This document shows positions 827 to 26,930 of a DNA stretch of 64,000 bases, piece by piece. Origin of the DNA: Enchytraeus crypticus (Eukaryota > Annelida > Clitellata > Enchytraeida > Enchytraeidae); contig CAJHZI010000266.1 in assembly GCA_905160935.1 (NCBI GenBank), positions 372,001 through 436,000 on the forward strand, given 5' to 3'. Every line of letters begins with the position of its first letter. Positions within the stretch are counted from its first letter, which is position 1. The notes beneath the pieces are model-generated. The model searched no databases. It was not told the origin of the DNA and saw nothing but the letters and a program-made list of their open reading frames with translations. The position numbers were made by a program, and so were the translations under genes.

Positions 827-857
827 TTTATAATAAAAATTTAAATGTTATATAAAA

Positions 858-2712: not shown

Positions 2713-2734
2713 ATAAATATATGTATGTAATAAA

Positions 2735-6132: not shown

Positions 6133-6663
6133 ATGTACTGCTTGAAATGTAAAAGGAAAACTGATTCTACACAGACGCAGGAAAGGTTAACTGCTAATAA
6201 TAGAAAACAGCAATTTGCTATTTGTGGAGTGTGTGGAAGTAAAAAGTCAAAATTTGTCTCGGGTCAGGGTGTGTTTAATAATGTATTATCAGCAGTTGGA
6301 AATACAGTTGGAGAACTACATTTACCTGCCAGACGTGGAGAGTACGTACCTAACGGTTCATTTAATAATCTCAACAAGTATTCGTACTGCGGTCCAGGCA
6401 CAAAGTACGAACTGAGAAATCGCGAAGGTTATCAGGGTATAAATGAGTTGGATGGAATGTGTAAATTGCACGACCAGTTTTATACTGCAAATACCGATAC
6501 AGCGAGCAGAAATATAAGCGACGAAGCTTTGGCTCATCGAGCATACGAAATTGCTAATGATTCAAGATTTGATAGTGCACAAAGAAATATGGCTCGATTT
6601 GTATACCACATCATGAAAAATAAGGCAAAGTTTGGTCTTGGTGTTGAGTCAAAAAACGAATAG
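6133..6663 (+). CDS. Zinc-ribbon phospholipase A2 protein (176 aa)
   Basis: The N-terminus carries a zinc ribbon (C3, C6, C31, C34: YCLKC...CGVCG). A phospholipase A2 domain of the parvovirus VP1/secreted-PLA2 type follows: the calcium-loop motif YCGPGT is at 85-90 and the catalytic pair H113-D114 is in MCKLHDQFY. Such domains breach the endosome membrane during entry; this role is inferred here. Element B carries the same fusion at 19501-20048, broken by a frameshift. The start follows TTTAAAAATG. The final codons form an A AAA AAC slip site, and the integrase lies in the -1 frame, so a PLA2-integrase fusion is likely. Confidence 0.88.
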   Translation: MYCLKCKRKTDSTQTQERLTANNRKQQFAICGVCGSKKSKFVSGQGVFNNVLSAVGNTVGELHLPARRGEYVPNGSFNNLNKYSYCGPGTKYELRNREGYQGINELDGMCKLHDQFYTANTDTASRNISDEALAHRAYEIANDSRFDSAQRNMARFVYHIMKNKAKFGLGVESKNE

Positions 6664-6710
6664 AGGGGTCCAGCGAAGAAAGAGGTTTGAAGCGAAACGT
6701 TGGACCCTTT
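6651..6710 (+). promoter_or_regulatory. -1 programmed ribosomal frameshift signal, PLA2 to integrase
   Basis: The heptamer A AAA AAC (6651-6657) is in phase with the PLA2 gene, two codons before its TAG (6661-6663). After an 8-nt spacer, GGGTCCAGCG (6666-6675) pairs with CGTTGGACCC (6698-6707) in a 10-bp stem with one G-U pair. The stem can extend three pairs downward (6663-6665 with 6708-6710). The loop is 22 nt. The -1 frame is open from here through the integrase. A AAA AAC is one of the most efficient known eukaryotic slip sites. Element B has a slip site at the corresponding place (19540-19546, minus strand). Confidence 0.85.
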
Positions 6711-7643
6711 GAAGAATTGGCTAGAGAATTACACAAACCGATTCGCAGAAAATTTACAAGACGACAAGTTCACGTGTTTGAAGTTGATGAGATATGGGGA
6801 GCAGATTTAATCGAAATGCAGGAGTGGAGTAGAGTAAATAAGGGCTACAGATACATGCTTAACGTCATTGATGTGTTTTCCAAGTATGCATGGAGCGTTC
6901 CGTTGAAAGACAAGAGAGGTGAAACAACTGCAGAGGCATTTAAACAAATAGTGTCATCGTCGGGAAGACAGCCTAAACATTTATGGGTTGATCAGGGTAA
7001 GGAATTTTACAACAAAAACTTGGATGATTGGTTAAAGAAACTTGATATCAATAGATACTCTACATTTGGTGAACATAAATCAGCAGTCGTCGAACGATTC
7101 AATAGAAGTATCAAGGAAAAGATGTGGAAAAGATTTACTGCGGAAAATACGAGAAATTGGATTGATATGATTGACGATTTAATTGCAGAGTATAACAACA
7201 CGAAACATTCGACTGTAAAAATGACTCCAATTGAGGCGAGTAAAAAGGAAAACGAAGCATTTATAATTAACAGTAGGAAGTATAGAAATTTGGAAACGAA
7301 TCGAAAATTTGAGGTTGGCGATAGAGTTAGAATTAGTCGGATTAAGGGTGTGTTTGAAAAGGGATTCCTACCCAATTGGTCTGAAGCGGTGTACAAGATA
7401 TCCAAAGTGCAATACACATCCCCGATCACTTATAAATTGACAGATTCGTTAGGCGAAGAGATAGAAGGAGGTTTTTACGCAGAAGAATTGCAGAAGACAA
7501 ATCAAGAAAATTATAGAATTGAAAAGGTTCTACAACGGAAAAAGATTAAAGGTGTGGAACATGCCTTGGTTAAATGGGTGGGTTACAACAAGAAATTTAA
7601 TGAATGGATTCCCATATCTAATTTACAAAATTTAGATTCATAA
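6657..7643 (+). CDS. Retroviral-type (rve) integrase with chromodomain, expressed by -1 frameshift
   Basis: Polinton integrase, which inserts the element and makes the 6-bp target duplication. Counting from the TTG at 6687, the catalytic triad is D40 (GADL), D102 (VDQGKEF) and E136 (VVERFNR). An SH3-like segment follows near 210-260, then a C-terminal chromodomain (about 276-318, with ALVKWVGY and NEWIP) that may guide insertion to certain chromatin. The conserved N-terminal motif ELHKPI.RKF.RR precedes the triad, and no in-frame ATG lies upstream of it. The first ATG is past the first catalytic Asp. Together with the absent start motif, this favours translation only as a PLA2-integrase frameshift product. 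A TTG start at 6687 is the weaker alternative. Confidence 0.93.
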   Translation, partial: RIEGSSEERGLKRNVGPFEELARELHKPIRRKFTRRQVHVFEVDEIWGADLIEMQEWSRVNKGYRYMLNVIDVFSKYAWSVPLKDKRGETTAEAFKQIVSSSGRQPKHLWVDQGKEFYNKNLDDWLKKLDINRYSTFGEHKSAVVERFNRSIKEKMWKRFTAENTRNWIDMIDDLIAEYNNTKHSTVKMTPIEASKKENEAFIINSRKYRNLETNRKFEVGDRVRISRIKGVFEKGFLPNWSEAVYKISKVQYTSPITYKLTDSLGEEIEGGFYAEELQKTNQENYRIEKVLQRKKIKGVEHALVKWVGYNKKFNEWIPISNLQNLDS

Positions 7644-10164: not shown

Positions 10165-10279
10165 AGTAGATATATGGTACCTTCAGTACACAAACTCTAA
10201 AACTCCTAATTTTCGCTCACCACGCTCACTCAAATTAGGATTTTAAGAGTTTCTCCCCTGAATGTACCATATATCTACT
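10165..10279. repeat. Terminal foldback hairpin, left end of element B
   Basis: The outermost 115 bp are themselves an imperfect palindrome: AGTAGATATATGGTAC... at 10165 pairs with ...GTACCATATATCTACT ending at 10279, and AAACTCTAAAA..CCTAATTT pairs with AAATTAGGATTTTAAGAGTTT. The loop is CGCTCACCACGCTCAC. A hairpin end of this kind could act in replication priming or end protection (inference). A small stem GGCTC/GAGCC follows at about 10283-10300. Confidence 0.85.
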
Positions 10280-10589
10280 AAAGGCTCAATTTTTAGAGCC
10301 TAGTTGCCCCTTATTTTTTCTCGCGAGCAAATATCTTGAAAAAATTAATTTTTAAATCGACCCAAATATTATAGGACTACTTTACGTTGCTCATTAATAT
10401 TTGAGTGAATGTAATTTTGCGTACTAGATTTTTTCTTTCATATAATTTTGTGTACTATAAATGGTACTAACAATTGAAGAGCTCCATAAACTAAAACCAT
10501 TTTCTAATTTACAGTTAGATCGTAATCAAGTGGAAATAATTTTAGCCCGTAAATTAACGGACAAAGAATGGAAATCATATACTAAAGAC
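10165..10589. repeat. Element B left terminal inverted repeat (425 bp)
   Basis: It matches the reverse complement of 26506-26930 with three visible mismatches: at the foldback arm (two) and in the CTAGTTGCCCC/CTAGTTGACCC stretch. The inner part (10461-10589) duplicates the first 43 codons of the element B polymerase, so the repeat contains the polymerase start site and its ATAAATGG promoter motif in both orientations. Confidence 0.95.
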
Positions 10590-10658
10590 TATCGCAAAAT
10601 ATTTACTCCCATAGCTAAACAAGCTGCTGCAAATCTAATCCAAAACTCGGTAGCTTAA
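10461..10658 (+). pseudogene. Duplicated polymerase N-terminus inside the left TIR
   Basis: The first 43 codons are identical in frame to the start of the element B polymerase, because the TIR covers that start. Beyond the TIR edge at 10589 the frame continues for 22 unrelated codons to a TAA. It could be transcribed from the TIR promoter motif but is most likely a by-product of the repeat. Confidence 0.7.
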
Positions 10659-11053
10659 AAGATCCTGTTTAACAATTACAGAATAATTCGCTTTGTTAAT
10701 TATAGAAGAATCCGCTTTGTCAATTATTTTAAAAGAATAACTTTATGGATATGTTCTATGATTAGTCGCATTCCATGCATTCCCTCGTCTAGGTACCTAG
10801 ACTACAGAATGTGTAATGTTGTGCTCAACCTTTGCAAGTTTACAGCAATCATGTTATACCGTTAGCATGTTAAACTGTTAAAATGCCCCGCCGATACTCG
10901 GTTGGTTATACCAAAAAAACGGCAGAAATTAGTTACAGAAGCAATCCCAGCTTGCTGTATAAATTAACGTTACCGGCGCTTTATTAAAACAGAAGGGTAT
11001 ACTACTGCTTTAGTAAGACATTAAATATTTTTTAGTAATCAATTTTTATCGTT
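10590..11053. other. Element B left intergenic region
   Basis: No convincing gene. Two near-repeats of AATTCGCTTTGTTAATTAT and AATCCGCTTTGTCAATTAT lie at about 10687-10726. A TATA box (TATAAAT, 10958-10964) lies about 90 bp before the ATG at 11054 and is the best promoter candidate for that gene. Confidence 0.5.
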
Positions 11054-12420
11054 ATGGCTGATATTAAGAAAATAACTGGATTCTCTGAAGATGCTATTGA
11101 GCAGTGTATGGAGAGAGTGTTTTCGCCTGAACAAAAGAAGGAATTTATGGAAATGTCTAGGAAACTTTCAGAAGGCCTTGGGGACCGCAAAAAAGTAGTT
11201 GTAAAACGAAAACCTAGTACTCTCCTTCCATCGGCACAAGACTTATTCAATACCAAGATTTTGCTACAAATTAAGTGTAAACTGAATGTATACGAAAATG
11301 ATCAAGTGAGTGGAGGTTCGCGTAAACTAACTATGGATCTTTCTAAGTTTGATAAGGATTATTCATTACTCCCACTGCAAGAACTCCAGCAAGCTCATCA
11401 ATCTATACTGGTACAAGAAGAAACAGTTGGTGCTATAACTTTGATTGTGAAGTTCTATCGTGGAATGCTTTATGTAGAAGCCTATAAACGAGCAATGGAA
11501 AATGCTGCAATCTTAAAAGAATGGTTTAGCATGACATTGAATGTAAGCTATGATACAGCAATGCGATATATGACATTCGCGTGCTTAATACGTCGATTTC
11601 CAAGGCTAATAGTGTGTGATCTGAGTTTTGAACAAATTCTTAAACATCACAAGAACCTCATAGACTATCTTTCAGGTGATGATGATTTATCCGCCAAACT
11701 TTCTATTGCTACTGAATTTAACCACTTGTCAGATACAACTACAAAGCGACTAAAAATTGAAGCCTCGGAAATATACATACCAGGTTTGTTTAAAGCTTTT
11801 TGATTTAGTGCTATGGGCAGTTTGGCCTAAAAAAGTATTAAATAAATAGCTAAATTATTTATTAAATTGGAGCAGTTGCTTTTTTTTGCTCAAAAATAAC
11901 TACTAAGCTGTTTTTATATAAATATCAATAAGTATATACATGTAGTATTACAACTGCGTAATGTAATTTTTAATTAACTTAAAGTGAGCAAAATTTTAAA
12001 ATCAACACAGTATAATGCAGGCTATATTTATATAAACTAAGGATAGGATTATAGATTAGTATACAAATACCAAGCTTGTTTAAGACTACTCAGGCTCTTG
12101 TCAAATGTTAATTATGTGCTATATTTTTATTTTATTTAGATTTATCGTATAATTCTGACCCTGATGTGCATTATTATTCTTCGAATCAAGAAGATGATGA
12201 TGCTTTCTCAAACTGGATGGAGGACCACCAGCGCCGTGGCGACTTGAACAAAATCATGTTTCCCGAAGACAGCAGTCAGCGTATGGAAGACATAATGCGA
12301 ACAGTTGCGAACTTATGTATATCTCCAAATGAATCTATATCAAGTTCCAGATCGATTAGTTATGGAAGAGGAAGAGGCCAAGCAGCTCTAAAAGCTCTAC
12401 CACCGTCACATAAGCCATAA
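11054..12420 (+). CDS. Probably spliced accessory gene of unknown function (exons 11054-11783 and 12140-12420)
   Basis: The first open frame (249 codons if unspliced) has a helical C-terminal half with LKEWFSMTLNVSYDTAMRYM, resembling the helix-turn-helix-like region of phage DUF3102 proteins; this likeness is weak. A donor CAG|GTTTGT at 11783/11784 and an acceptor behind TTTTATTTTATTTAG (12139) keep the frame. The second exon is acidic then Ser/Gly/Arg-rich and ends at 12420, with ATTAAA at 12454. Unlike the other B genes it has no TAAATG motif, has a TATA box instead, and lies on the opposite strand. It may be a captured, host-style gene. The unspliced 249-residue product is the alternative. 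Confidence 0.6.
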
Positions 12421-12497
12421 CTGACTAAATTATTATATACATTACTTCGGTTATTAAAGCACTATATTATGAGTGTCTATATTTTTAACGTTTTCTA

Positions 12498-12835
12498 TTA
12501 AAAAAACTTATAACTAACATAACCAGATATACTTTTAATAAATGCAGTAACAAATATTTCATTATATTTTTGCTCATTATTAGGTTTATAAAAATCACTT
12601 AATACAGGTTTTCTAGATAATTTTATTACACCATCAGGATGTGTATTATTATAAAATTCTAATGCTCTATCTACATCATCAAAAGTGCTTCTTGCATCAT
12701 TTTTATCTCTCATTTTATTATTAATAAAATCTAATGTATCTAATCTTTTTGATTCCATTCTTGATTAGCTCGTTGTAAATCTTCAATAGCTTTATCGTGA
12801 TTGTTGTGGATAACGTCAGTTTCATAATTCATCAT
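12498..12835 (-). pseudogene. Small element B gene with one-base deletion (about 112 codons)
   Basis: The start ATG at 12835 lies in AGTAAATGATG, immediately after the fibre gene stop. The frame stops at 12740-12742. The following frame, from a run of five A's (minus strand, 12750-12746) to 12498, continues as a helical 86-residue frame. The whole is 338 nt, one short of a multiple of three, so a single lost A explains the break. The slip context is not a frameshift heptamer. Function unknown. Confidence 0.65.
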
Positions 12836-12838
12836 TTA

Positions 12839-13711
12839 CTATACAAGCTCTGCTAATAATTCTTCACTCAAATATATAAATCCTAAATCAATAAGCAATA
12901 AATTCTTTTGAATCAATAATTCTTTTATATTAGTATTCTTTATCTTAGGACTTATACTGTTTACAAATTTCCTGTACCTCCTACGAACAGTTCCTTTCTC
13001 TGGTGTAAAAACTAGATTTTCTTTCACAAGATTTCTCTTTAAATCAATAAACTCATCCTCAAATAGTTCTTCAATAACTGCGATGATAACAACTTGTAAG
13101 TCTTTTATATGTGTAAAATATTCAAATTCATTAACAACATCCTTTCCATCATAAACTTCATTAAGAACAGCGGATAGGCTGACAGCTAATGTATACATTC
13201 TGTTAAAATATGCGACATATTTCTGAAGAAGCGGATTTCTATCTATTATTACAGATACAACATTTGCAATTTTCACCAAATTTTCTAAACTTATCTCGTG
13301 AGGTTTCCTTGTAACTTTTAAATAAAGTTTATTAATTACATCAAGGCTATTATCAGGAAATTGAATATTTGATATAGTATTAAAATTCATATCAAGTTTT
13401 CCATCACCCGTTTTGTTCAACTTCAATCCAACCTGTGCATCTACATAATCCTTCGTAGCACAGTCTTGACTATCTATGGGATTTTTAACATTTATCAGCT
13501 TATTACTTTTCATATCTAATTCACCTCCCTCAGTTAATTTAATTCCATTAGCCATTAAACCATTAGCAGATAGACTTAGCATATTATTGATATTAGGATC
13601 TATCTTTACCGATAGTGAATCGTTTTTAGAACTAAGTCCTCCATATGACAACAGTTTTAAATTAGATTCTAGCTTTTTAGATTGTCTACCAAATAGATCT
13701 ACAGTGTTCAT
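12839..13711 (-). CDS. Fibre-like protein with phage-tail-fibre-type repeats (290 aa)
   Basis: Homologue of the truncated gene at 1-826. Repeats GGELDMKSNKLINVKNP...DCATKDYVD (in part, residues 60-93) and DGKLDMNFNTISNIQ (100-115) match the shaft motif of phage tail fibres, in which each repeat ends with the stem of the next. The C-terminal half is helical, with charged patches. It follows the membrane-protein gene and its start lies in TAATAAATG. A spike or attachment role is likely but inferred. Confidence 0.8.
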   Translation of the reverse strand: MNTVDLFGRQSKKLESNLKLLSYGGLSSKNDSLSVKIDPNINNMLSLSANGLMANGIKLTEGGELDMKSNKLINVKNPIDSQDCATKDYVDAQVGLKLNKTGDGKLDMNFNTISNIQFPDNSLDVINKLYLKVTRKPHEISLENLVKIANVVSVIIDRNPLLQKYVAYFNRMYTLAVSLSAVLNEVYDGKDVVNEFEYFTHIKDLQVVIIAVIEELFEDEFIDLKRNLVKENLVFTPEKGTVRRRYRKFVNSISPKIKNTNIKELLIQKNLLLIDLGFIYLSEELLAELV

Positions 13712-13717
13712 TTATTA

Positions 13718-14104
13718 CTATAAAAATTCTTTAATGATATCATTTGATTCCTGTTCTGTTAAATCTCCATTACACTTAATCACATAATTCATTTGTTGTT
13801 TCAATCTATCTAACCTAGATATCATATTATTTAGTGCCGCTTTCCTACTTTTGAGATTAAATTTAGTTGATATAGCAGTTGATAAAGCTCCAACAGCTGA
13901 TAACGTAGTAATGATTACTGTAGGAAGTAATGGCAATGCAAATACGCCAGATATTGTAGTTGTTACTGTTGAAACACTTATTGATGTAACTATTGTTATA
14001 CCATAAACTACTTGAACTATTTTTCTCTTTCTTTTCAAATGTTTGATTTTAGCTTCACAATCTTCTAGCTTATCACTCAAAAATTGTTTTACATTATTCG
14101 TCAT
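13718..14104 (-). CDS. Two-helix membrane protein (128 aa)
   Basis: Charged, coiled-coil-like ends (residues 1-27 and 85-128) flank two hydrophobic segments (about 30-52 and 55-78), separated by a short turn containing Pro. The shape recalls holin- or fusion-like small membrane proteins in Polintons, but no family is recognised. No counterpart in element A is visible within the window. The gene lies between protease and fibre. The start lacks an exact TAAATG (TAAATAGAATG). Confidence 0.7.
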   Translation of the reverse strand: MTNNVKQFLSDKLEDCEAKIKHLKRKRKIVQVVYGITIVTSISVSTVTTTISGVFALPLLPTVIITTLSAVGALSTAISTKFNLKSRKAALNNMISRLDRLKQQMNYVIKCNGDLTEQESNDIIKEFL

Positions 14105-14105
14105 T

Positions 14106-14507
14106 CTATTTAACTAAAGATAAAATTAAATCTTTATAATCGGATCCTTCACTTAAACGTTTTAGTACAATCAAACACCATTTTCCGCAATTCTGATCCA
14201 TCAATCCTTGCAATTGAAATGTAGAGTATAAAATAGGTGATCCTAAATATTCAATTACTTCCTTTGGTGGGGGCAAACCAAAACTGTTAAAATAATATTT
14301 TTCATTATTAATTTTATACCAACAAGTCCAATGACTGCCACTTTCACTAGATAAATTTAAATTTAATATTCCACACTCAACTTTACAAGATTTTAAATTC
14401 TTCAATTCATCTCTCATATAGCAACCCCTAAAACTTTTAATTTTTAACATTTTTGAATAATTCTCAATTTCAATATTACTAAGAGCCCTATCAGGAATAC
14501 TATCCAT
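14106..14507 (-). CDS. Adenain-like cysteine protease (133 aa)
   Basis: Catalytic His59 lies in GSHW and Cys107 in NCGKWC, with Gln100 seven residues before it, as in adenain. The usual acidic partner is Asn74 (YFNSFG), whereas element A has Asp. Unlike element A, this protease has its own ATG in CTAAATGG, 8 nt after the core-protein stop, and does not overlap it. Its N-terminus shows where the conserved fold begins, and so shows that the element A ATG at 1538 is internal. Confidence 0.88.
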   Translation of the reverse strand: MDSIPDRALSNIEIENYSKMLKIKSFRGCYMRDELKNLKSCKVECGILNLNLSSESGSHWTCWYKINNEKYYFNSFGLPPPKEVIEYLGSPILYSTFQLQGLMDQNCGKWCLIVLKRLSEGSDYKDLILSLVK

Positions 14508-14514
14508 TTAGTGG

Positions 14515-14946
14515 TTATAATCTTAATCCTTTTCCCTTTGATCTACCTTTTCCTGTCTTTAATTGATCCTCAAGCGCTCTATTATGTCTTGCAGTTTCTT
14601 TATCAGCTTGACTTTGTTGAACTCTTGATGCAACAGTTCCTGCAACTGTACTTACTCCTCCCAAAGCAGCAGCAATAATAGGAATTAATACTGCTAAAGG
14701 TAAAAGCCCCCCTTTCTTTATTTTATTACTTATAAATTTTAATTGTGCTGAAGAAAACTTTAAATCATGAACATTACCATCATGCAATTTATTTATTTGA
14801 GTTGCAGTTAATGGTAAATTATATCCATGTTGGTTCATATCTGTTTTACTTAATCTCAAAGTAACTTCTGTATTGCCTTTAATCGCAATAGCAATTTTCT
14901 CTATCTGGCTTTTAGTCAAGGTAAACTTTGTTTGATAATAAGTCAT
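14515..14946 (-). CDS. pX/pVI-like virion core protein (143 aa)
   Basis: Two repeats with LTKSQIEKI..A and PLTATQINKL precede a hydrophobic GGLLPLAVLIPIIAAALGG segment (about 79-97) and a basic tail ending GKGRSKGKGLRL. Homologue of the protein at 858-1430, shorter by the Gly-rich C-terminal extension that carries the frameshift signal there. The start lies in CTAAATAAATG. Next gene: protease. Confidence 0.8.
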   Translation of the reverse strand: MTYYQTKFTLTKSQIEKIAIAIKGNTEVTLRLSKTDMNQHGYNLPLTATQINKLHDGNVHDLKFSSAQLKFISNKIKKGGLLPLAVLIPIIAAALGGVSTVAGTVASRVQQSQADKETARHNRALEDQLKTGKGRSKGKGLRL

Positions 14947-14962
14947 TTATTTAGATAAAAAT

Positions 14963-16348
14963 TTAATATCTGATATATTGTTTACTACCATCTGATTCTA
15001 TCGACCAAATTCTATCATGATATACAACTGCATAAGCTGTAGTATTTGCGGGAGCATTTGCACTAAACTTAAAAGTTACTCTGATATCTACAACAGTATT
15101 TTTAAGTCTCTCAGACTGTTTCGATACATCAAATACGTATAACCTAAACAACTTCTTAAAAGCTTGATACGATATACAATCATTCTCTTCTTCATCTTCA
15201 GAATAACTTTTCTTAAATTCTTTAAACGAATTATAAAATTGAGCATACTGATTACTGTCATAATTAGTTATATAATCATTGCTAGGATATCTTTCACTAT
15301 TCAATTCAACATAAGCATTAATTACTTGCACATTAGCATTGAATATAGCATAATTAGTTTCTGCTTGATTAGCTGCTGGAGATTGAAAGCCTACAACGAT
15401 ATACCTAGGTTTTTCGATACCTGAAGCTATAGATAATCTCCAAGCAAATTCAGTAGCTTGGGGAACAATAGTGTTCTCAGATTTCTTGTTCATAAAACAA
15501 AGCGGAAACGATTCCTTTTCCTTAATGTAATCATTTAAAATTCCTCTTTCTTCTAAACTTACTGTAACTACTGGAATATGCCATTGTATCTTAGTTAAGT
15601 TTACCTTACCAGCATTAGCAACTCCACCATTTCGTATTATTGCCTGAGTATCAGTTTGTCTAGGAAAAACAATTGAATGCTTACATCCGTAAATAATCTT
15701 TCTATATTGTTTACAGAAATTGAATATAAATTCTAAAGGAATTTTGAATGCAAATGATCCAGATGTATAATTTCTTCTTTCTTCAAATCCCTTATTTTGA
15801 TTGATCATTCCATCTGTTAATCTCGTAACAGTTGTTTGTAAAGCTGTTAATATATTAGCAGCAGTATTTCCTGGAATATCTCCTGCTACTAAATTAACAA
15901 TTTCACTTAAAGTCTGAGGTGTTCCATTTCCAGAATCTAAGCTCCAACATTGATCCATTCCATTGAAACTATTACTTTTAGTTAATAATGCATCTATTGT
16001 TGTAGTATGACCTGGATATTGAAATCTCTCAACTTCATGATCTCCTATATGATATCTTGCTTCGCTAAATAGATACATCATAGCATTATTTTGTAATGCT
16101 ACTAAACTATTTGCAGCATAAGGTTGATTAGTAGTAGAATCTTGTAATTGTCCTTCAATGTAAAGAAAACTCTTACAAGGTAATGACCAGATATCTTCAC
16201 TTAAAATTTGAATTCTAATTTCTTGTCCATTTGCATTAAGTGCAGTTCCTTGAGATGGATCATAAACTCTGTATTGAAACTTTTCTACAGATTCATCATA
16301 ATTAAAAGATTTTTCAAGCTCCAGATAAGACTCCTTTACTTTCTCCAT
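14963..16348 (-). CDS. Major capsid protein (hexon-like, 461 aa)
   Basis: Double jelly-roll capsid protein, colinear with the element A protein at 4700-6079. Shared anchors are the FQYPGHTT motif near residue 110, the IEKPRYIVVGFQ segment near 310-320 and YVFDVSKQSERLK near 410. The frame is intact and the start lies in TTAATAAATGG. It is preceded by the small conserved gene and followed by the core protein. Confidence 0.92.
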   Translation of the reverse strand: MEKVKESYLELEKSFNYDESVEKFQYRVYDPSQGTALNANGQEIRIQILSEDIWSLPCKSFLYIEGQLQDSTTNQPYAANSLVALQNNAMMYLFSEARYHIGDHEVERFQYPGHTTTIDALLTKSNSFNGMDQCWSLDSGNGTPQTLSEIVNLVAGDIPGNTAANILTALQTTVTRLTDGMINQNKGFEERRNYTSGSFAFKIPLEFIFNFCKQYRKIIYGCKHSIVFPRQTDTQAIIRNGGVANAGKVNLTKIQWHIPVVTVSLEERGILNDYIKEKESFPLCFMNKKSENTIVPQATEFAWRLSIASGIEKPRYIVVGFQSPAANQAETNYAIFNANVQVINAYVELNSERYPSNDYITNYDSNQYAQFYNSFKEFKKSYSEDEEENDCISYQAFKKLFRLYVFDVSKQSERLKNTVVDIRVTFKFSANAPANTTAYAVVYHDRIWSIESDGSKQYIRY

Positions 16349-16363
16349 TTATTAATGAAAAAA

Positions 16364-16663
16364 CTAAACGTAAGCAAATCCAGTTCCAATTTTAAATTGA
16401 TTAATTCTATCAACAATATTTTGTAACTCAGGTTTTCTTTTATTCCTTATCTCTTGAACAATTGCTTTTGTTGAATCAGCAAACTTTACAGTATTTGTTA
16501 TTGCTTCCGTTGGAGAGTTAATACCAATGTCTTTAGGTAAAGATAAAACTTTTAAAATATCTACAAAACCTTTACCACTTACATATTCTCTATTTCTACA
16601 ATGACAATAACCCTTTCCACATATTACTTTTCTACTTTCTCTCCTCTTTAGCTTGAGGCCCAT
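16364..16663 (-). CDS. Small conserved virion-module protein (99 aa)
   Basis: A basic N-terminus with CGKGYCHC (possible metal site) is followed by VSGKGFVDILK, the motif shared with the 95-residue protein at 4385-4672. The rest is helical. Its position between minor and major capsid genes is conserved. The start lies in TTAATAAATGG. Function unknown, probably structural. Confidence 0.75.
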   Translation of the reverse strand: MGLKLKRRESRKVICGKGYCHCRNREYVSGKGFVDILKVLSLPKDIGINSPTEAITNTVKFADSTKAIVQEIRNKRKPELQNIVDRINQFKIGTGFAYV

Positions 16664-16721
16664 TTATTAATCATTAATTTATAATTATATATATATTTTT
16701 TCGGCATCCTGAGTAATAACA

Positions 16722-17516
16722 TTATTTTACACTTCTAATATGAAATCTACAAGTAATGTTCTCTCCTCTAAAATCTATAGGTCTTCCATCTTGATCTGTT
16801 ATCCAAATACTAAATTCACTCAATGTTTTCCTGTTCAAAGGTAAATAAACAAGATTAACAGGTGATTCTACAATTCTAAAACCTGGTGATACTTTGGGAC
16901 CAAATGAATATATAACTGGAGATGATATTCCATTAACAAACGATTCAGTTATACAATCGCAATTAACAAATATACTGTTGAACTCAATAATGTTAACAAT
17001 ATTTTGAGATACATTATGACCCTTTGATAAAATATAAGAATCAAAACCTAATATACTTCTTAGTGAATTTGGTATTGTAAAATCAACTTTATATTCTGAA
17101 TTTGTAATATCGATATTCGATTTCATAGTTGAAGTATTAGGTGATAAAGTTATGTAATAAGCATTACTAACAGAATCCCAGTCTCCATTTAGTTTCATCA
17201 ACCTCTGAATCTCATCATTTATTGCTTCAATTTGATACGTTCCAATTTCTATTGTTATTAATTTCCAAGTATTCCCACCATCTATCGAATATTTAAAATT
17301 ATTATTCTTTTCTGTAATGTTTGCAAAACTGTACCATGTCTCTAAATTTACAAGTGCAATTTCAAGATCATAATCATTAAGAATAATAGGATTAGTAAAT
17401 TTAGTGGTACAAAGTTCAGATGAATTATTGTATGATACGAGTATATTTTTAGATATATGCCTTTTCTGAAAGTAAGCAGAAATGGGTTCAAGTAAATTAA
17501 TTAATTTCTGTTCCAT
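16722..17516 (-). CDS. Minor capsid protein (penton-like, 264 aa)
   Basis: Homologue of 3632-4363. It shares FKYSIDGGNTWKLIT, the IEAINDEIQRLM.LNGDWD segment and the C-terminal FSIWITDQDGRPIDF. A single jelly-roll vertex protein is expected. It has about 20 extra N-terminal residues relative to A. The start lies in TAATAAATGG, a few bases after the stop of the 402-residue coiled-coil protein. Confidence 0.88.
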   Translation of the reverse strand: MEQKLINLLEPISAYFQKRHISKNILVSYNNSSELCTTKFTNPIILNDYDLEIALVNLETWYSFANITEKNNNFKYSIDGGNTWKLITIEIGTYQIEAINDEIQRLMKLNGDWDSVSNAYYITLSPNTSTMKSNIDITNSEYKVDFTIPNSLRSILGFDSYILSKGHNVSQNIVNIIEFNSIFVNCDCITESFVNGISSPVIYSFGPKVSPGFRIVESPVNLVYLPLNRKTLSEFSIWITDQDGRPIDFRGENITCRFHIRSVK

Positions 17517-17522
17517 TTATTA

Positions 17523-18731
17523 TTATTGAATTTTGCGTATAATGTTTCTTAGTTGTTTCTTAGTTATTATTCCTTTATTGAATAAAATATCTAAAATAGC
17601 ATTAATTTCATTAAACATACTTTTATTTCCAGCTGAATATTCTCCAATCAATAGATTTAATCTTTCTTTTAAGGTATCTACATTATCTGATAGAATTATT
17701 GTATTTAGTCCATTACCAATTACTTGAACATCTTTATCCAATTCATTCAATCTATTTAGTTTTTTAAGCACGCTGTGTAACTTTTTACCTATTGTTTGAT
17801 GTTGCCTGTAATCTAATCCCGAATCAATGCATATTGTTAAATAACTATTTAAATCTGTATCTAATATTCTTTCATCTAAATTGGGATTAACTCTATTCAA
17901 CAATAACTCTAAACCTTGTGTAAGAATATGTTCTTTATCTGCAATTTTAATTTTGTTATCTTTGAATAGAACATTGTAGTTACCAAATTTTACAGTATCA
18001 GGATCATTTTCTTCGTAATATAAGATAGGTGAAACAGTTACGATTCCATATTTACCTTTATTATTTATTCCAGGATTTCTTTTCATTAAACTAACCATTA
18101 CTTCTTTATACATTTTATTATCACTTGGGCTTTCCTGAAATACAGAATCTGTGTAAGTAGGTAATTGTACATCTTCTTCTTCATGTTCTGAGGTTTTAAT
18201 TTTTTCTTGTATCCCATAATATTGTACGAGTGTTCTTAGATCATCATCATCGAGATGATTTAAAGGTTCTAGTGTTTTTCTGTCTTGTTCATTAAGATTC
18301 TGTATACCATCAGGATGCATAATTTTCTTTACTAATTCTGGATAGTTATTTAATTTGTTAATTAATTCTGCTAATAATGGTTGTTTAGCTATTGAGCTGA
18401 TAATATCTAAACCTTGTTGTCTAGTTTCTTCCTTACATCTCACTAAACCTCTAATAATATCTGCAAGTAATCGTGATGATCTATCATGTTTACCTTGTAA
18501 ATCTGTTAACAATTGTTGAAACAAATCATCCGTTCTTGTAATCTGCTTACTGATTGCTAACTGTTGTGTATCTGTAATAGGTTTGTATATTTCTTTTAGC
18601 TCTGTTTGTACATTTTGTTTAGCAATAACTTCATCATCAAATCTTTTCCTTAATTTTCTATTCTGAGTTGATACTTTCTTGAGCAATTCTTGATTTTCTC
18701 CATTCATCAACTCTTCTTTAAACCTACTCAT
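17523..18731 (-). CDS. Coiled-coil virion-module protein (402 aa)
   Basis: Long charged helices fill residues 1-120 and 290-402. The middle has NLNEQDRKTLEPL, matching NLNESDRENLDLL of the element A protein at 2735-3595, and both end in a similar helix pair (AILDILFNKGIITK). A beta-rich insert near 225-285 is absent from A, and the AT-hook of A is absent here. It lies between integrase and minor capsid genes. The function is not recognised. Confidence 0.75.
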   Translation of the reverse strand: MSRFKEELMNGENQELLKKVSTQNRKLRKRFDDEVIAKQNVQTELKEIYKPITDTQQLAISKQITRTDDLFQQLLTDLQGKHDRSSRLLADIIRGLVRCKEETRQQGLDIISSIAKQPLLAELINKLNNYPELVKKIMHPDGIQNLNEQDRKTLEPLNHLDDDDLRTLVQYYGIQEKIKTSEHEEEDVQLPTYTDSVFQESPSDNKMYKEVMVSLMKRNPGINNKGKYGIVTVSPILYYEENDPDTVKFGNYNVLFKDNKIKIADKEHILTQGLELLLNRVNPNLDERILDTDLNSYLTICIDSGLDYRQHQTIGKKLHSVLKKLNRLNELDKDVQVIGNGLNTIILSDNVDTLKERLNLLIGEYSAGNKSMFNEINAILDILFNKGIITKKQLRNIIRKIQ

Positions 18732-18748
18732 TTATTAACTATATTTTT

Positions 18749-19540
18749 TTAAAATGATGATAAATTCAATTCTTGCTTGTAGAAAGATCCGATAATATCT
18801 TCTCCGTTTAAATCTTTTATTTTATATGTTATTGGAGATGTATTGATAATTTTAGATACAGTGAATATTTCTTCAGTCCAATTTGTTTCGTAACCTTTTG
18901 AAAATAATTTTTTATATTTATAAATTCTAACTCTATCACCTATTTTAAATTTTGGTTTCTCTTTAGTAGGTTGTGGTATGTAATTAATTTTGTGTTCATT
19001 TTCCAACTTTGATCCTTCAGTTGGAGTCATTTTAATTGCAGAATGAATTGTATTATTATATTCATGAATCAGTTTAGGTAAAGCATCTAAATATTTATTA
19101 CTTCCTGTTTCAGTAAAATATCTCCACATCTTTTCTTTAATAGTTCTATTAAATCTTTCAATAACAACAGCTTTACCTTCATTGAACGTTTGATATAACT
19201 CTATTTCATTATCAGTTAAGAATTTCTTAAATTCTTTGTTAATAAATTCCTTTCCTGCATCAGTCCATAATTTTTTAGGTTTTCTTTCTTTGAATAATTG
19301 TTGAAATAATTCAATCATTTGTTTACCTGTCTTAACTTTTATCGGTATTGCCCAACCAAATTTAGAGAATACATCTATTACAGTGAGAATGTAATTGAAT
19401 CCTTTATTTTGCTTTGCGTATTGTCTCATATCAACTAAATCTGCTGACCATATATCATCTATATTATACACTATAACTTTTCTTCGTTTAAATTTCTTTA
19501 TTATGGGTTTGTGTAATTCTTTAGCTTCTTCGATTTTGTT
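18749..19540 (-). CDS. Retroviral-type (rve) integrase without chromodomain, in -1 frame of PLA2
   Basis: Catalytic residues: Asp in SADLVDM, Asp in WTDAGKEF, Glu in VIERFNR, with 33 residues between the last two as in element A. An SH3-like segment (FKIGDRVRIYKYKKLFSKGY) follows, and the protein ends soon after; the chromodomain of A is missing. The conserved N-terminal ELHKPI motif lies upstream of the first possible start (GTG at 19471), with no ATG and no TAAATG before it. The frame is the -1 frame of the PLA2 gene and is open from the slip site at 19540-19546. Confidence 0.9.
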   Translation of the reverse strand, partial: NKIEEAKELHKPIIKKFKRRKVIVYNIDDIWSADLVDMRQYAKQNKGFNYILTVIDVFSKFGWAIPIKVKTGKQMIELFQQLFKERKPKKLWTDAGKEFINKEFKKFLTDNEIELYQTFNEGKAVVIERFNRTIKEKMWRYFTETGSNKYLDALPKLIHEYNNTIHSAIKMTPTEGSKLENEHKINYIPQPTKEKPKFKIGDRVRIYKYKKLFSKGYETNWTEEIFTVSKIINTSPITYKIKDLNGEDIIGSFYKQELNLSSF

Positions 19541-20048
19541 TTTTTTAATGTTCCTAAACCTAATTTATATTTTGTGGCTATAATCGGTTTGATAACTGCT
19601 TTACCTAATTTTTCATTAAAATTCAAATCTTTAAGATTATCAAGTTCTTGTAACATCTTCTTATCTGCTTCATGCCTAGTTCCCTTTCCTAAATCAGAAT
19701 CTCTATAAGCTAAATCATGTTTTAAACAAACTTCATCAACTTTATTTATAGGCTTTGACCATTCTTTTGGTGTGTCATCAGGATTTAATCTTTCCTCTAG
19801 CTTTGTATTTGGACCGCAGAATGAATACTTTTTACCTTTCAGAGTTCTAAGATGAACTTCAGTAGGTATTTTAGAAATTACAGATGAAACTATATCCCTC
19901 CAGTTTTAGACTTTGATATAAATCTATTCTTTTTAGATCCACAAACTTCACATATACCTTTAAGTATTGGTTTATTATTTTTAGTTATGGATTCAATTAA
20001 GTCTAAAGTTAAAGTCTTACTTTTACATTTAAGACAATATATTTCCAT
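19501..20048 (-). pseudogene. Zinc-ribbon phospholipase A2 gene with one-base deletion
   Basis: The first frame starts at 20048 in CTAAATGG, encodes the zinc ribbon (YCLKCK...CEVCG) and stops at 19890-19892 right after a GGG run (19898-19896). The next frame then carries the PLA2 domain (YSFCGPNTK, then VCLKHDLAY with the His-Asp pair) to the TAA at 19501. One lost G explains it. The fusion is the same as at 6133-6663, so the ancestral gene was whole. A sequencing error in the run is possible. Confidence 0.8.
19540..19546 (-). promoter_or_regulatory. Candidate -1 frameshift slip site A AAA AAA, PLA2 to integrase
   Basis: On the minus strand the PLA2 codons TTA AAA AAA ACA create an in-phase A AAA AAA heptamer about 45 nt before the PLA2 stop (19503-19501). 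Slipping back one base enters the open integrase frame. I do not see a strong hairpin 5-9 nt downstream, unlike element A, so efficiency is uncertain. Confidence 0.55.
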
Positions 20049-20063
20049 TTAGTGGAATGAAAA

Positions 20064-20357
20064 TTAATTCAATTGAATATAAGATGAGCAGTTTGGAATA
20101 TATCCAGAAATCTCAGCGTATGTGTATTTAGAATTTTTTCTAACGGTGAATAAAAATTTATTTTTTGGGGAATTTAGAGAAATATATGAAGCTATTAGTT
20201 TAGTGGCAAACATTTCAAATTTTTCATCATTAGAGATGTGTGTACATGTGATAATATAAGTATCTCCAAATTTAGTATTTTTTATCGGTTTATATCCGAC
20301 CACAAAATAAGATTGATCAATTTGTAAATCGGCAAGCTTCAGAAGTTGTGCGTCCAT
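20064..20357 (-). CDS. Small OB-fold-like protein, putative ssDNA-binding (97 aa)
   Basis: Homologue of 7681-8025: LADLQIDQSYFVVGYKPIK followed by NTKFGDTYIIT aligns with LKVEDKYIVMGLKPIH...TKFGKSYIL. Beta-rich throughout. It lies between ATPase and PLA2 and starts in CTAATAAATGG. A role in replication is inferred from the fold-like pattern only. Confidence 0.65.
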   Translation of the reverse strand: MDAQLLKLADLQIDQSYFVVGYKPIKNTKFGDTYIITCTHISNDEKFEMFATKLIASYISLNSPKNKFLFTVRKNSKYTYAEISGYIPNCSSYIQLN

Positions 20358-20372
20358 TTATTAGCTGAAAGA

Positions 20373-21296
20373 TTATATGAAAGCTTTTTCATGACGCTTC
20401 GATTTAATATGTTTAGCATGACTAGAACTTAACATTGTTAGGTTGCAAGCTCTACAAGTTTTTGTAGCTCTACGTATTCTATCTATAGGTTGTGATACTA
20501 TATTTTCAACTAACTGTACAGGTTTTTCAAGTTCTAATTTAAATCTATATTTTTCATTGATATTTGTTTTTGATTTATCTATAACTAAATATCCATATTT
20601 CTTAGACCATGCTTGTTCACACAACTGTCTAAATTTATTAATATCTTTAAAATCAACGCTTGCTCCAGAATCTCTATATAGATTATCGGTGTCCCCGGGA
20701 TCTAGATTGAATAATATTAGGAAATTAGAATTTGATCTAATAGTATGTCTTGGTAAATGATAATAATTTTGAGAAATGTATATGCAATCGATATTATTAT
20801 GTCTACTTCTGGTAAAAAATGCTCCAGGTGCCGATTGATTCTTATCTGTCATAATATCGTCAAATATTATTAGATTCTTGTCCTGTTTATCAAACTCTTT
20901 AGGATCTGGAATATCGGATGGATCTTCATAATATTCGCAAGATATATCTCCTTTCTCCTCATCTTCTAAGTCATATGCAAGTCCTGCCGCTATAACTTCC
21001 GGCTTTTCATCGCGTTCATTAATCATAGAATTATGCATTAGGATTTCTGTTATATCAGACTTAGGTAATTTATTATCAAAGCCGGCTTTTAGTATTTGAT
21101 ATTCTGGTTGATGGAGGGATCTTCCGAATACATATAGTTTATTATAATCTAACATATCTTCCTGAAGTAGCATCCGCATAAGTAAAGCCGTTTTTCCGGA
21201 ACCCGATTGACCGATTATTAAGCATCGGAATGACTCCGGAAATATATCGGAATGCTTCTTACTCTTCTTCGATATCCAATAATACTTCGCTTCCAT
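20373..21296 (-). CDS. FtsK/HerA-type packaging ATPase with C-terminal zinc finger (307 aa)
   Basis: Walker A GQSGSGKT is at residues 29-36 and Walker B NLIIFDDIM at 141-149, followed by the FTRSRHNN helix also seen in element A. The last 30 residues form a U1/matrin-type C2H2 finger (CRACNLTMLSSSHAKHIKSK, then RH), absent from the A enzyme. A nucleic acid or partner contact is plausible. The start lies in GATAAATGG. It is divergent from the lectin-like gene. Confidence 0.93.
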   Translation of the reverse strand: MEAKYYWISKKSKKHSDIFPESFRCLIIGQSGSGKTALLMRMLLQEDMLDYNKLYVFGRSLHQPEYQILKAGFDNKLPKSDITEILMHNSMINERDEKPEVIAAGLAYDLEDEEKGDISCEYYEDPSDIPDPKEFDKQDKNLIIFDDIMTDKNQSAPGAFFTRSRHNNIDCIYISQNYYHLPRHTIRSNSNFLILFNLDPGDTDNLYRDSGASVDFKDINKFRQLCEQAWSKKYGYLVIDKSKTNINEKYRFKLELEKPVQLVENIVSQPIDRIRRATKTCRACNLTMLSSSHAKHIKSKRHEKAFI

Positions 21297-21349
21297 TTAT
21301 CTGTATAAACTCCACTCAAAAATATTTCAATAAAATATTTACCTATTAA

Positions 21350-21595
21350 ATGAAAGTAGAGTTTGGAAAGCAAAATATATTTGGTTCAAGATTTAGTGGT
21401 GGATCAGGATTTACACCTCATAAATTTACAGAACCTCCAGTTGTTATTTGTCAGTTAGTAAGATCAGCTCGATATGGTCAGGATTGGGCTCTGCATATTA
21501 ACCCGTGTAATATTACAAAGGATGGTTTTCAATATTTTGTAGAAGGTCATTATAAACCTGGAGATCAATGTCACTGGATAGCTATTGGTAATTAG
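21350..21595 (+). CDS. H-type-lectin-like protein (81 aa)
   Basis: The chain has the H-type lectin pattern: F.EPPVV near residue 27, then alternating strands, N.TKDGF near 53-59 and the closing CHWIAIGN. H-type lectins (as in snail agglutinins) bind GalNAc-type sugars as trimers. It is shorter than a usual 100-residue domain at the N-terminus and has no signal peptide. It is one of only two B genes on the plus strand and starts in ATTAAATG, the late-type motif, so it is probably expressed with the virion genes. A sugar-binding attachment factor is a reasonable guess. The call rests on pattern, not on a search. Confidence 0.65.
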   Translation: MKVEFGKQNIFGSRFSGGSGFTPHKFTEPPVVICQLVRSARYGQDWALHINPCNITKDGFQYFVEGHYKPGDQCHWIAIGN

Positions 21596-21634
21596 TATAT
21601 CTTTACCTGCTGTTAAAAGTTATCTTAAAACATC

Positions 21635-21730
21635 TATCATAATAATATCATAATAATAATAAAATAATAAAAATAATAATATTATAATGAATAATAATAA
21701 TAATAATAATAATAAAGAATAATAATCGAT
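21635..21730. repeat. (AAT)n microsatellite
   Basis: Imperfect then perfect AAT/ATA repeats fill the convergent gap between the lectin-like gene and the Cys-rich gene. Confidence 0.9.
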
Positions 21731-21774
21731 GTCACTAAATAACTATTAATGATTAGTATATCATAACCTAGTTG

Positions 21775-22368
21775 TTAAAAGTCATCATCATATCTCCTTA
21801 AAAATCTAACACCACCACAGTCACCACCACAGTCACCACCACAGTATATACATAGCTCAGAGCATATCATATCACAGTCACCACCACAGTATCTACATAC
21901 TTCTTCTGCTTCTGTATTGTTCTTATAACATCCACATATGACTAAATCTTTACCACACTTTTCACATATTAACTTTTTTGTATTTCTTAATTTAGCATAT
22001 ATGGAGTCCGTAAAAGGCACATGAGCAATAAGAACTAAAGTACCCTCATCAAGTCTATTAAAATCTATGCCATCAAGCAGTATATGTTCGATTATTTTAA
22101 AATCATCATCATCATAATCATCATCTCCAAACTTAATACCCTTCATCCTTGATAATTCAAAGCACAAATTATCGATCAATACGTAAGTATCATCAGTAAT
22201 GTTACTAAACTTAATTCCTCTGCAGAGTGTAGCTTCCAAACATTTTAAAACTGGTGATTTAAGAAACAATAATTTTTCAAAAGGTCCCATACCCTCTAAT
22301 TTTTCTAAAGTTGTATCTAGCACCTTTCTCAAAGCCATATCTTGTAGTCGATTCATTGTTCCTTTCAT
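21775..22368 (-). CDS. Cys-rich protein with CGGDC repeats (197 aa)
   Basis: The first 130 residues are helical with an acidic patch (DDDYDDDDF). The last 65 hold CEKCGKDLVICGC, then CRYCGGDCDMICSELCIYCGGDCGGDCGG, a likely zinc-binding tail. The final CGGDC copies come from a 12-bp tandem duplication (TCACCACCACAG on the plus strand). No family recognised and no counterpart in element A. The start lies in CTAATAAATG, overlapping the end of the upstream zinc-finger gene by 4 bases. Probably an accessory, host-interaction gene. Confidence 0.7.
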   Translation of the reverse strand: MKGTMNRLQDMALRKVLDTTLEKLEGMGPFEKLLFLKSPVLKCLEATLCRGIKFSNITDDTYVLIDNLCFELSRMKGIKFGDDDYDDDDFKIIEHILLDGIDFNRLDEGTLVLIAHVPFTDSIYAKLRNTKKLICEKCGKDLVICGCYKNNTEAEEVCRYCGGDCDMICSELCIYCGGDCGGDCGGVRFLRRYDDDF

Positions 22369-22589
22369 TTATTAGAGGATTCTATATATGAAAGAAAATT
22401 TTTCAAATGTAGTTTTGTTTTAATATGATCTGAGTAATTGTATAGTGTCATGGTTTTATCACATATTTCACAGTAATACTTTTTAGCAGCATATTTTTTA
22501 TAAGCTTTTAACTTTGCTTCGTTTCTCTCTTCCTCTGTGTCATACTTTTTAACTCTTCTAATTAAATCACCTGTTAGGCGATCACTCAT
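22365..22589 (-). CDS. U1-type zinc-finger protein (74 aa)
   Basis: A basic helix (residues 10-38) precedes one finger, YCEICDKTMTLYNYSDHIKT followed by KLH, of the same U1/matrin type as at the end of the element B ATPase. Short basic-helix-plus-finger proteins of this kind are frequent in Polintons; the role is unknown. The start lies in CTAAATAAATG, 32 bp after the polymerase stop. Confidence 0.75.
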   Translation of the reverse strand: MSDRLTGDLIRRVKKYDTEEERNEAKLKAYKKYAAKKYYCEICDKTMTLYNYSDHIKTKLHLKNFLSYIESSNK

Positions 22590-22621
22590 TTATTTAGTAA
22601 TTAAATTATTAAAATTAAAAC

Positions 22622-26634: not shown

Positions 26635-26930
26635 TTATAGTACACAAAATTATATGAAAGAAAAAATCTAGTACGCAAAATTACATTCACTCAAATATTA
26701 ATGAGCAACGTAAAGTAGTCCTATAATATTTGGGTCGATTTAAAAATTAATTTTTTCAAGATATTTGCTCGCGAGAAAAAATAAGGGTCAACTAGGCTCT
26801 AAAAATTGAGCCTTTAGTAGATACATGGTACCTTCAGGGGAGAAACTCTTAAAATCCTAATTTGAGTGAGCGTGGTGAGCGAAAATTAGGAGTTTTAGAG
26901 TTTGTGTACTGAAGGTACCATATATCTACT
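26506..26930. repeat. Element B right terminal inverted repeat (425 bp)
   Basis: Reverse complement of 10165-10589 apart from three mismatches. The last 115 bp (26816-26930) form the same foldback hairpin as the left end. The polymerase start (26634) lies within it. Confidence 0.95.

What the first reader, a model, noticed from the sequence alone, without database searches (positions are those of the whole stretch)
6651..6710. PLA2-integrase fusion by -1 ribosomal frameshifting in a DNA Polinton
Seen: A AAA AAC in phase with the PLA2 gene, an 8-nt spacer, and a 10-bp stem (6666-6675/6698-6707). The integrase is in the -1 frame, has no ATG before its conserved N-terminus and has no start-site promoter motif. 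Known: A AAA AAC plus a downstream structure drives gag-pro shifting in retroviruses such as MMTV. Inferred: the integrase is made only as a zinc-ribbon/PLA2/integrase fusion and enters particles with the entry enzyme. I know of no description of such a switch in Polintons.
Basis: partly seen in the sequence, partly recalled or inferred. Interest (0 to 1): 0.9.

Follow-up and report, generated by a model that had tools for sequence, protein, structure and literature searches.

The report
Frameshift-made Polinton integrase
A virus-like mobile element in a large eukaryotic genome seems to make its integrase only when ribosomes slip back one base at the end of a phospholipase gene, a retrovirus-style trick that sequence conservation strongly supports but no experiment has yet shown.

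Summary
A AAA AAC (6651-6657) lies in phase with a zinc-ribbon/PLA2 gene, 8 nt before a GC-rich stem; the integrase frame is -1, with no ATG until codon 57, inside the catalytic domain. It is not chance or decay: in the same 524-Mb genome 60 of 67 PLA2-integrase junctions examined keep in-phase heptamer and -1 frame (16 distinct sequences; synonymous divergence between two main subfamilies is saturated). Spacer and stem persist, three pairs changed on both sides. One family (two decayed copies) has U UUA AAC with the same spacer and stem, in phase in one copy. Elsewhere, 108 of 115 PLA2 tails (120 listed of 549 homologs) keep xKN, x always a residue with an A-ending codon. A nested second Polinton also has integrase at -1, on an A-run without a stem. 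Related integrases also occur as in-frame zinc ribbon-PLA2-integrase fusions and, without PLA2, as zinc ribbon-integrase, so the slip probably gives the integrase its own zinc ribbon. Best reading: -1 programmed ribosomal frameshifting that makes a minor PLA2-integrase fusion. Packaging with the entry enzyme is inference. Ten searches of open-licence papers gave no description of it. No experiment was possible.

The parts
6133..6663 (+). Frame-0 gene: zinc ribbon (DUF5679) + parvovirus-type phospholipase A2; ends ...TCA AAA AAC GAA TAG
   Evidence: Pfam DUF5679 E 2.2e-9, Phospholip_A2_4 E 5.5e-7
6651..6657 (+). Slippery heptamer A AAA AAC, in phase with the PLA2 gene
   Evidence: in-phase heptamer and -1 integrase in 60 of 67 junctions examined; 108 of 115 homologous PLA2 tails keep xKN
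6658..6665 (+). 8-nt spacer between heptamer and GC core of the stem (contains the frame-0 stop TAG 6661-6663)
   Evidence: the same 8-nt spacing in the family A and D junctions aligned
6666..6707 (+). Stimulatory stem-loop, 10-bp core 6666-6675/6698-6707 (RNAfold extends to 6663-6710)
   Evidence: -19.9 kcal/mol, z -4.0; covariation
6648..7643 (+). Integrase (rve + chromodomain) in the -1 frame, no ATG before codon 57 (6816)
   Evidence: codons 20-56, upstream of any ATG, under purifying selection
19540..19546 (-). Second Polinton (family B), nested: A AAA AAA in phase with its PLA2 frame; integrase in the -1 frame, no stem
   Evidence: (20 of 20 best family-B loci, one of them the window's own)
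18749..19564 (-). Family-B integrase, -1 frame, first ATG codon 46 inside rve
19501..19905 (-). Family-B PLA2 frame in this copy (its zinc ribbon lies upstream in another frame; of the other 19 best family-B loci 18 have one 182-aa frame, L122 one of 188 aa)
10165..26930 (-). Whole family-B Polinton: 425-bp terminal inverted repeats 99% alike, target duplication TATAAC at 10159-10164/26931-26936

Best explanation
The junction is a -1 programmed ribosomal frameshift signal. Most ribosomes translate the zinc-ribbon/PLA2 protein and stop at 6661-6663. A minority, paused by the hairpin, slip back one base on A AAA AAC and go on into the integrase, giving a zinc ribbon-PLA2-integrase-chromodomain fusion. 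The integrase of these elements probably began as a zinc ribbon-integrase gene, as family C still is; PLA2 sits between the two parts, and the frameshift makes both PLA2 alone and the complete integrase. Shown by sequence: heptamer, phase, spacer, stem, their conservation and covariation, absence of a usable ATG, selection on the ATG-less N-terminus, and in-frame fusions in relatives. Inferred: that slippage occurs, its efficiency, that it is ribosomal, and that the fusion is packaged with the entry enzyme.
For: (1) 60 of 67 junctions in the genome have in-phase A AAA AAC and integrase at -1, 16 distinct sequences; first ATG at codon 57 in 55 of the 60, 60 in two, 64 and 125 in one each, 15 in one. 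(2) The codon before AAA AAC varies (TCA, ACA, GCA, GAA) but always ends in A; AAC is kept although AAT is the commoner Asn codon (12 v 27, 5 v 32, 5 v 34), with dS saturated between the window and L012 subfamilies. (3) Stem at the same 8-nt spacing in the 15 family A and D junctions aligned, 3 of 12 pairs changed on both sides, covariation score reached by 0 of 500 shuffles. (4) Family D has U UUA AAC, same spacer and stem; in L145 it is in phase with no ATG before it. (5) Of 120 listed of 549 separate PLA2 homologs, 115 have a tail, 108 of those keep xKN and x always has an A-ending codon; 78 continue xx[KR]G[PSL] or near it (the reading of the stem's 5' arm), 23 stop at once. (6) 40 of 120 listed (of 2198) integrases are in-frame fusions; the fused/separate state changes at least 8 times on the tree. 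(7) Integrase codons 20-56, with no ATG, have dN/dS about 0.13 between the window and L012 or L024. (8) In family C the zinc ribbon is joined straight to the integrase (Pfam on L130; the same match in 14 of 14 loci).
Against: No RNA or protein data. 7 of 67 junctions lack the arrangement (L022 and L027 in-frame, L070 heptamer lost, L074 decayed upstream, L073/L075/L077 family B). L053, a decayed copy, has an ATG at codon 15. 7 of 115 homologous tails have no KN. 16 of 120 integrase hits have residues upstream of the core, so some relatives may start independently. Family B has no stem, and its A-run length differs between copies: of 27 loci held a regex caught 20, of which 15 are -1, 4 in-frame, 1 +1; by my hand count's table about 50 family-B rows have the 271-aa open frame, 6 one of 432-433 aa and 16 one of 264-268 aa with a stop at its start. 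L144 has its heptamer out of phase. L026 has a mismatch in the stem. The stem arms also code protein, so part of the covariation may be coding; the count of doubly changed pairs is reached by 47 of 500 shuffles, and related rows can beat shuffles without structure. The relatives' codons are inferred from protein, not read as DNA. The window's own element is probably dead.
Confidence: 0.88

Rival explanations
1. Decay or assembly error: an indel near the end of a once in-frame fusion gene put the integrase out of frame.
For: In-frame fusions exist in relatives and in a few copies (L027, L022, L146-L149). Polintons often decay, and the window's older element has an in-frame stop and a nested insertion in its minus-strand gene.
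Against: The same -1 offset, heptamer, spacer and stem recur in 16 distinct junctions and the offset in families A, B and D; the ATG-less N-terminus is under purifying selection; in-frame fusions lack the xKN motif (1 of 32 parsed linkers has it).
Confidence: 0.03
2. Transcriptional slippage on the A-run rather than ribosomal slippage gives a mixed mRNA population.
For: Family B uses an A8 run without a stem, with copies of different run length.
Against: In family A the run is mostly only six A, phase-locked to codons, with a conserved stem; family D uses UUUAAAC, not a homopolymer.
Confidence: 0.05
3. The integrase starts on its own: non-AUG start, reinitiation after the PLA2 stop, or a separate promoter.
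For: 16 of 120 integrase hits have residues upstream of the core, though their Met may stand for TTG or GTG; L144 has an ATG at codon 4, L053 at codon 15.
Against: Does not need a phased heptamer, fixed spacer and covarying stem; in 59 of 60 heptamer-bearing copies the first ATG is codon 57 or later, in family B codon 46; no TATAWA near the junction; family C suggests the zinc ribbon belongs to the integrase.
Confidence: 0.07
4. The conserved PLA2 tail (SKNxKKGPxKKK) is kept only as a basic or nuclear-localising tail, and the DNA features follow from it.
For: Many tails are basic.
Against: 23 of 108 stop directly after KN; the A-ending codon and AAC are kept beyond amino-acid need; family D changes the residues to L-N but keeps a canonical heptamer.
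Confidence: 0.04

Closest known systems
Retroviral gag-pro/gag-pol -1 frameshifting (e.g. MMTV; recalled)
   Same: A AAA AAC heptamer, short spacer, downstream RNA structure, integrase downstream of a particle-type protein, minor fusion product expected
   Different: DNA element; the upstream partner is a zinc ribbon + PLA2, not Gag; no reverse transcriptase in the Polinton ORFs scanned
Coronavirus U UUA AAC frameshift site (recalled)
   Same: Family D (L145) carries this heptamer with a downstream stem
   Different: Simple stem-loop, no pseudoknot found; other kind of genome
Adintovirus Penton and Hexon-Adenain frameshifts suggested by KnotInFrame (PMC11071296, passages read)
   Same: Same broad virus-like group; -1 frameshift hypothesised
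   Different: Other genes; the passages read give no conservation test and do not mention the PLA2-integrase junction
Polinton/Maverick PLA2 and integrase genes as described (PMC4642659 and PMC5803895, passages read)
   Same: Same proteins; PMC5803895 reports separate CAP (PLA2) and INT ORFs and a chromodomain
   Different: Treated as independent genes in the passages read; 'frameshift' does not occur in PMC4642659, and in PMC5803895 its two occurrences concern errantiviruses

Membership tests
Polinton/Maverick | rve integrase, protein-primed PolB, packaging ATPase, double-jelly-roll capsid protein | tested here: met
   Met in full for the nested family-B element: DNA_pol_B_2, DJR, Pox_A32, rve. 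Element A: rve, Pox_A32-like ATPase, DJR; its PolB was not identified
Polinton/Maverick | Adenain-like protease | tested here: inconclusive
   Peptidase_C5 E 0.015, below cut-off
Polinton/Maverick | Long terminal inverted repeats and 6-bp target duplication | tested here: met
   Family B: 425-bp TIR, 99%, TATAAC duplication. Element A: no terminal pair seen among the 25 of 30 inverted pairs shown for 1-40000; its left end probably lies outside the window
-1 programmed ribosomal frameshift site | In-phase X XXY YYZ heptamer | tested here: met
   A AAA AAC; A AAA AAA; U UUA AAC
-1 programmed ribosomal frameshift site | 5-9 nt spacer and stable downstream RNA structure, conserved with covariation | tested here: met
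   for families A and D; not met for family B
-1 programmed ribosomal frameshift site | Overlapping downstream ORF in the -1 frame without its own early start | tested here: met
-1 programmed ribosomal frameshift site | Measured frameshift product | not testable with these tools
   No RNA or protein data held
Retrovirus / LTR element | Reverse transcriptase in the same element | tested here: not met
   No RVT in the Polinton ORFs scanned (not every ORF was scanned); the RVT at 42.3-43.9 kb lies outside family B and beyond element A's known genes

The most novel reading that the evidence does not exclude
Polintons have a retrovirus-like way of loading their integrase into particles: PLA2 sits within an integrase gene, between its zinc ribbon and its core, and a -1 frameshift makes both free entry enzyme and a minor PLA2-integrase fusion that is packaged with it. 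Lineages move between this state, constitutive in-frame fusion and other slip sites, including UUUAAAC.
Probability: 0.5. Interest if true: 0.92.

Novelty: new variant of a known kind. Interest (0 to 1): 0.82.

Why it matters
[quoted passage not shown] A conserved frameshift that ties integrase to an entry enzyme gives a concrete, testable route, a retrovirus-like solution in a DNA element, and a reason why gene callers place the integrase start wrongly.

Tried and rejected
Whole-collection looks for DNA of relatives gave almost nothing: viral contigs with integrase (19), integrase alignment (25), PLA2 alignment (46) and the slip-stem pattern (34; 20 contigs, none with a PLA2 or integrase match below E 0.7). 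Genome contigs gave one MAG contig, L109, eroded and with a different layout (45, 47-49). So DNA-level evidence comes from one genome plus protein-level evidence from elsewhere. A loop-to-downstream pairing (pseudoknot) was considered by eye in the window; the loop is absent or changed in other subfamilies, so I do not claim it. Rfam had no match (106). A maturation-cleavage role for the conserved FGLG motif was considered; the patterns scanned in the other genes (66) showed nothing telling, so it stays speculation. I first took element A's minus-strand gene for PolB; Pfam up to E 10, comparison with family B's PolB and (for one piece) a search of solved structures did not bear this out (111-113), so it is called probable PolB by position and recall only. 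In one search my pattern missed 7 of the 14 junctions named; those were folded. Pseudogene indel, transcriptional slippage, own start and basic tail are treated as rivals.

Full report
What is there. At 6133-6663 is a gene for a zinc ribbon (DUF5679) and a parvovirus-type phospholipase A2; at 6648-7643, in the -1 frame, is an rve integrase with a chromodomain. The last PLA2 codons are TCA AAA AAC GAA TAG, so A AAA AAC (6651-6657) is in phase. Eight bases on, a stem 6666-6675/6698-6707 folds at -19.9 kcal/mol, z -4.0. The integrase frame has no ATG until codon 57 (6816), inside the catalytic domain.

Is it more than chance? In-phase canonical heptamers occur at 9 of 2045 codon positions in eight ORFs of the element, A AAA AAC at one, this one. 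The stronger test is comparison. I fetched 80 loci (L009-L088) and compared them with the window (recounted). Four had no integrase hit and ten an integrase but no PLA2 hit; of the 67 left, 60 have A AAA AAC in phase with the end of PLA2 and the integrase at -1, in 16 distinct junction sequences; the first ATG is codon 57 in 55 of them, 60 in two, 64, 125 and 15 in one each. The seven others: L022 and L027 are in-frame, L070 has lost the heptamer but keeps the stem, L074 is decayed upstream but keeps heptamer and stem, and L073/L075/L077 belong to family B. Many copies are near-identical, so the independent units are the subfamilies. Between the window and L012 subfamilies synonymous divergence is saturated in PLA2 and in the integrase core, yet heptamer, phase and 8-nt spacing are the same. 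The codon before AAA AAC varies (TCA, ACA, GCA, GAA) and always ends in A. AAC is kept although AAT is the commoner Asn codon in the three sequences counted.

The stem. All 14 family-A junctions with heptamer that I folded, in-frame L027 apart, form it: window, L011, L012, L019, L024, L026 (with one internal mismatch), L050, L053, L055, L069, L074, L076, L078, L083; z is -2.5 to -4.4 in the eight that were shuffled. On 15 distinct junctions (13 of family A, two of family D; in-frame L022 and L027, heptamer-less L070, and copies identical or nearly so in this stretch, such as L050, L009, L047, L052, were not put in) three of 12 pairs changed on both sides, 97.5% of cells pair, covariation score 0.210 against 0.123 for shuffles (0 of 500 as high) and at most 0.046 for slid versions. 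The count of pairs with double changes is less striking (47 of 500 shuffles reach it), related rows can beat such shuffles without structure, and the arms also code protein.

A different heptamer, same layout. Family D (L144, L145; integrase about 61% identical to the window's) has U UUA AAC, then again 8 nt, then a stem whose GC core matches and whose next pairs differ in a compensatory way; its frame-0 tail reads LNSKRGPMKKK, like the tails of other PLA2 homologs. In L145 the heptamer is in phase with the GLG motif and no ATG precedes it (first ATG codon 58), though upstream its PLA2 was not recognised; in L144 the distance differs by one base and the heptamer is out of phase, with an ATG at codon 4. 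Both copies are decayed, so this rests on two copies.

Elsewhere, at protein level. Of 549 separate PLA2 homologs, 120 are listed; 115 have a tail past the FG motif, 108 of these have xKN, and x is S (93), P (5), T (4), L (3), A, K or Q (one each), all residues with a codon ending in A; x lies 2 to 20 residues past FG; afterwards 78 go on xx[KR]G[PSL] or nearly so, the coding reading of the stem's 5' arm, 23 stop at once, 7 do neither. Seven tails have no KN. Their codons were not seen. In-frame fusions behave differently: of 38 found by the PLA2 motif, 32 linkers could be parsed and one has xKN; P0014, found by a second motif, also carries SKN, followed in the same frame by LKEGSNEE...GPF, much like the two pieces that lie in frames 0 and -1 here. 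P0012 and P0032, called as separate integrases, have N-termini with FKKL, the -1 reading expected over such a heptamer.

Expression alternatives. Of 120 listed integrase hits (2198 in all) 40 are in-frame fusions by motif, 16 have residues upstream of the ELHKP stretch (one of these, P0106, looks like a partial fusion) and 64 begin in or after it (at least P0032 is misfiled, and some may be cut by contig ends). A first Met there is a gene caller's choice: P0003, 99% identical to the window, has it at a TTG of the window. On a tree of 106 rows (98 of the 120 hits, 22 dropped by the trimming rule; seven loci and the window; L145 also failed the rule) fused and separate states change at least 8 times, with one large fused clade of 32 rows. 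So the link between the two proteins seems to be kept while the way of making it changes. Integrase codons 20-56, before any ATG, show dN/dS near 0.13 between the window and L012 or L024, so this part is translated.

Why a fusion? In family C the zinc ribbon is joined directly to the integrase in one ATG-started frame without PLA2 (Pfam for L130; the other 13 of 14 loci L130-L143 by the same tblastn match and frame). The zinc ribbon at the start of the PLA2 gene therefore probably belongs to the integrase, as retroviral integrases too carry an N-terminal zinc domain (recalled). If so, only the frameshifted product is a complete integrase. The direction, insertion of PLA2 rather than its loss, is inferred.

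The second Polinton. A family-B element (10165-26930, 425-bp TIRs 99% alike, TATAAC duplication) is nested in the older one, in a minus-strand gene that by position and recall is probably PolB, though no search here identified it. Family B's integrase too is in the -1 frame, with A AAA AAA in phase and first ATG at codon 46; the 20 best-scoring family-B loci, the window's own among them, all agree. It has no stem. Not all copies agree: of 27 family-B loci held a regex caught 20, 15 -1, 4 in-frame, 1 +1, and one search's table, counted by hand, has about 50 family-B rows with the 271-aa frame, 6 with a 432-433-aa frame and 16 with a 264-268-aa frame and a stop at its start. Among 52 related PLA2 proteins 35 have a tail of 12 or more residues: 21 show the -1 relation, 4 the other, 4 are in-frame, 6 unclear. 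Family B thus supports the layout but leaves transcriptional slippage open.

Known or not. Ten searches of open-licence full texts (5, 6, 15, 16, 36, 37, 68-71) gave no description of this in the listings seen and the passages read; for 'slippery' with 'Polinton' the only paper is PMC11071296, whose passages suggest frameshifts in adintovirus Penton and Hexon-Adenain genes. PMC4642659 (passages) predicts that Polinton lipases are packaged for entry. PMC5803895 (passages) reports separate PLA2 and INT ORFs. The passages seen of PMC8097293, PMC10120064, PMC12567637, PMC7805220, PMC3671162 and PMC4028283 mention no programmed frameshift in Polintons. Many listed papers were not opened, and the adintovirus paper of 2021 is not held, so novelty is provisional.

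Verdict. Observation confirmed; -1 programmed frameshifting 0.88, unchanged by the final recount; packaging of integrase with the entry enzyme is plausible and untested.

Noticed in passing
window 10165-26930: A young family-B Polinton (425-bp TIRs 99% alike, TATAAC target duplication) sits in a minus-strand gene (probably PolB) of the older Polinton, whose ORFs 8066-9160 and 9161-10216 are also split by an in-frame stop, so that copy is probably dead.
   Followed up: partly
L110-L129, L146-L149, L073, L075, L077: In family B the A-run at the junction differs in length between copies and with it the integrase frame (-1, in-frame or +1), a possible phase-variation-like behaviour or mere replication slippage.
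   Followed up: partly
L130-L143: A third Polinton-type integrase family: zinc ribbon directly joined to rve, own ATG, no PLA2 in the gene.
   Followed up: partly
window 6133-6663 and 6648-7643 (proteins P0001, P0002): The short motif ELHxPxR occurs twice, after the zinc ribbon in the PLA2 gene (ELHLPAR) and at the start of the integrase (ELHKPIR), perhaps a trace of how PLA2 came to lie between them.
   Followed up: no
P0271: A family-B-type PLA2 that ends in the family-A slip tail (SKNSKKGS), as if the slip module had been swapped by recombination.
   Followed up: no
window 6631-6642 and homologs: FGLG motif just before the variable linker, its two glycines invariant in a 26-sequence PLA2 alignment, perhaps a processing or structural site.
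   Followed up: partly
window 837-1430 and 14515-14946: Both Polintons carry a small protein with similarity to the adenovirus mu core protein (Adeno_PX E 0.0013, below cut-off, and 1.5e-7).
   Followed up: no
window 2558-2742: A minisatellite with a 10-base unit (TACCTAATAA-like) around the end of the ATPase gene and before the next ORF.
   Followed up: no
window 42320-44691 (-): LINE-like remnant: endonuclease/exonuclease domain and reverse transcriptase.
   Followed up: no
L109: A bacterial MAG record (isolate Lab288P4bin87) holds an eroded Polinton contig, so it is probably contaminated with eukaryotic DNA; that it is from a termite gut is my reading of the name.
   Followed up: partly
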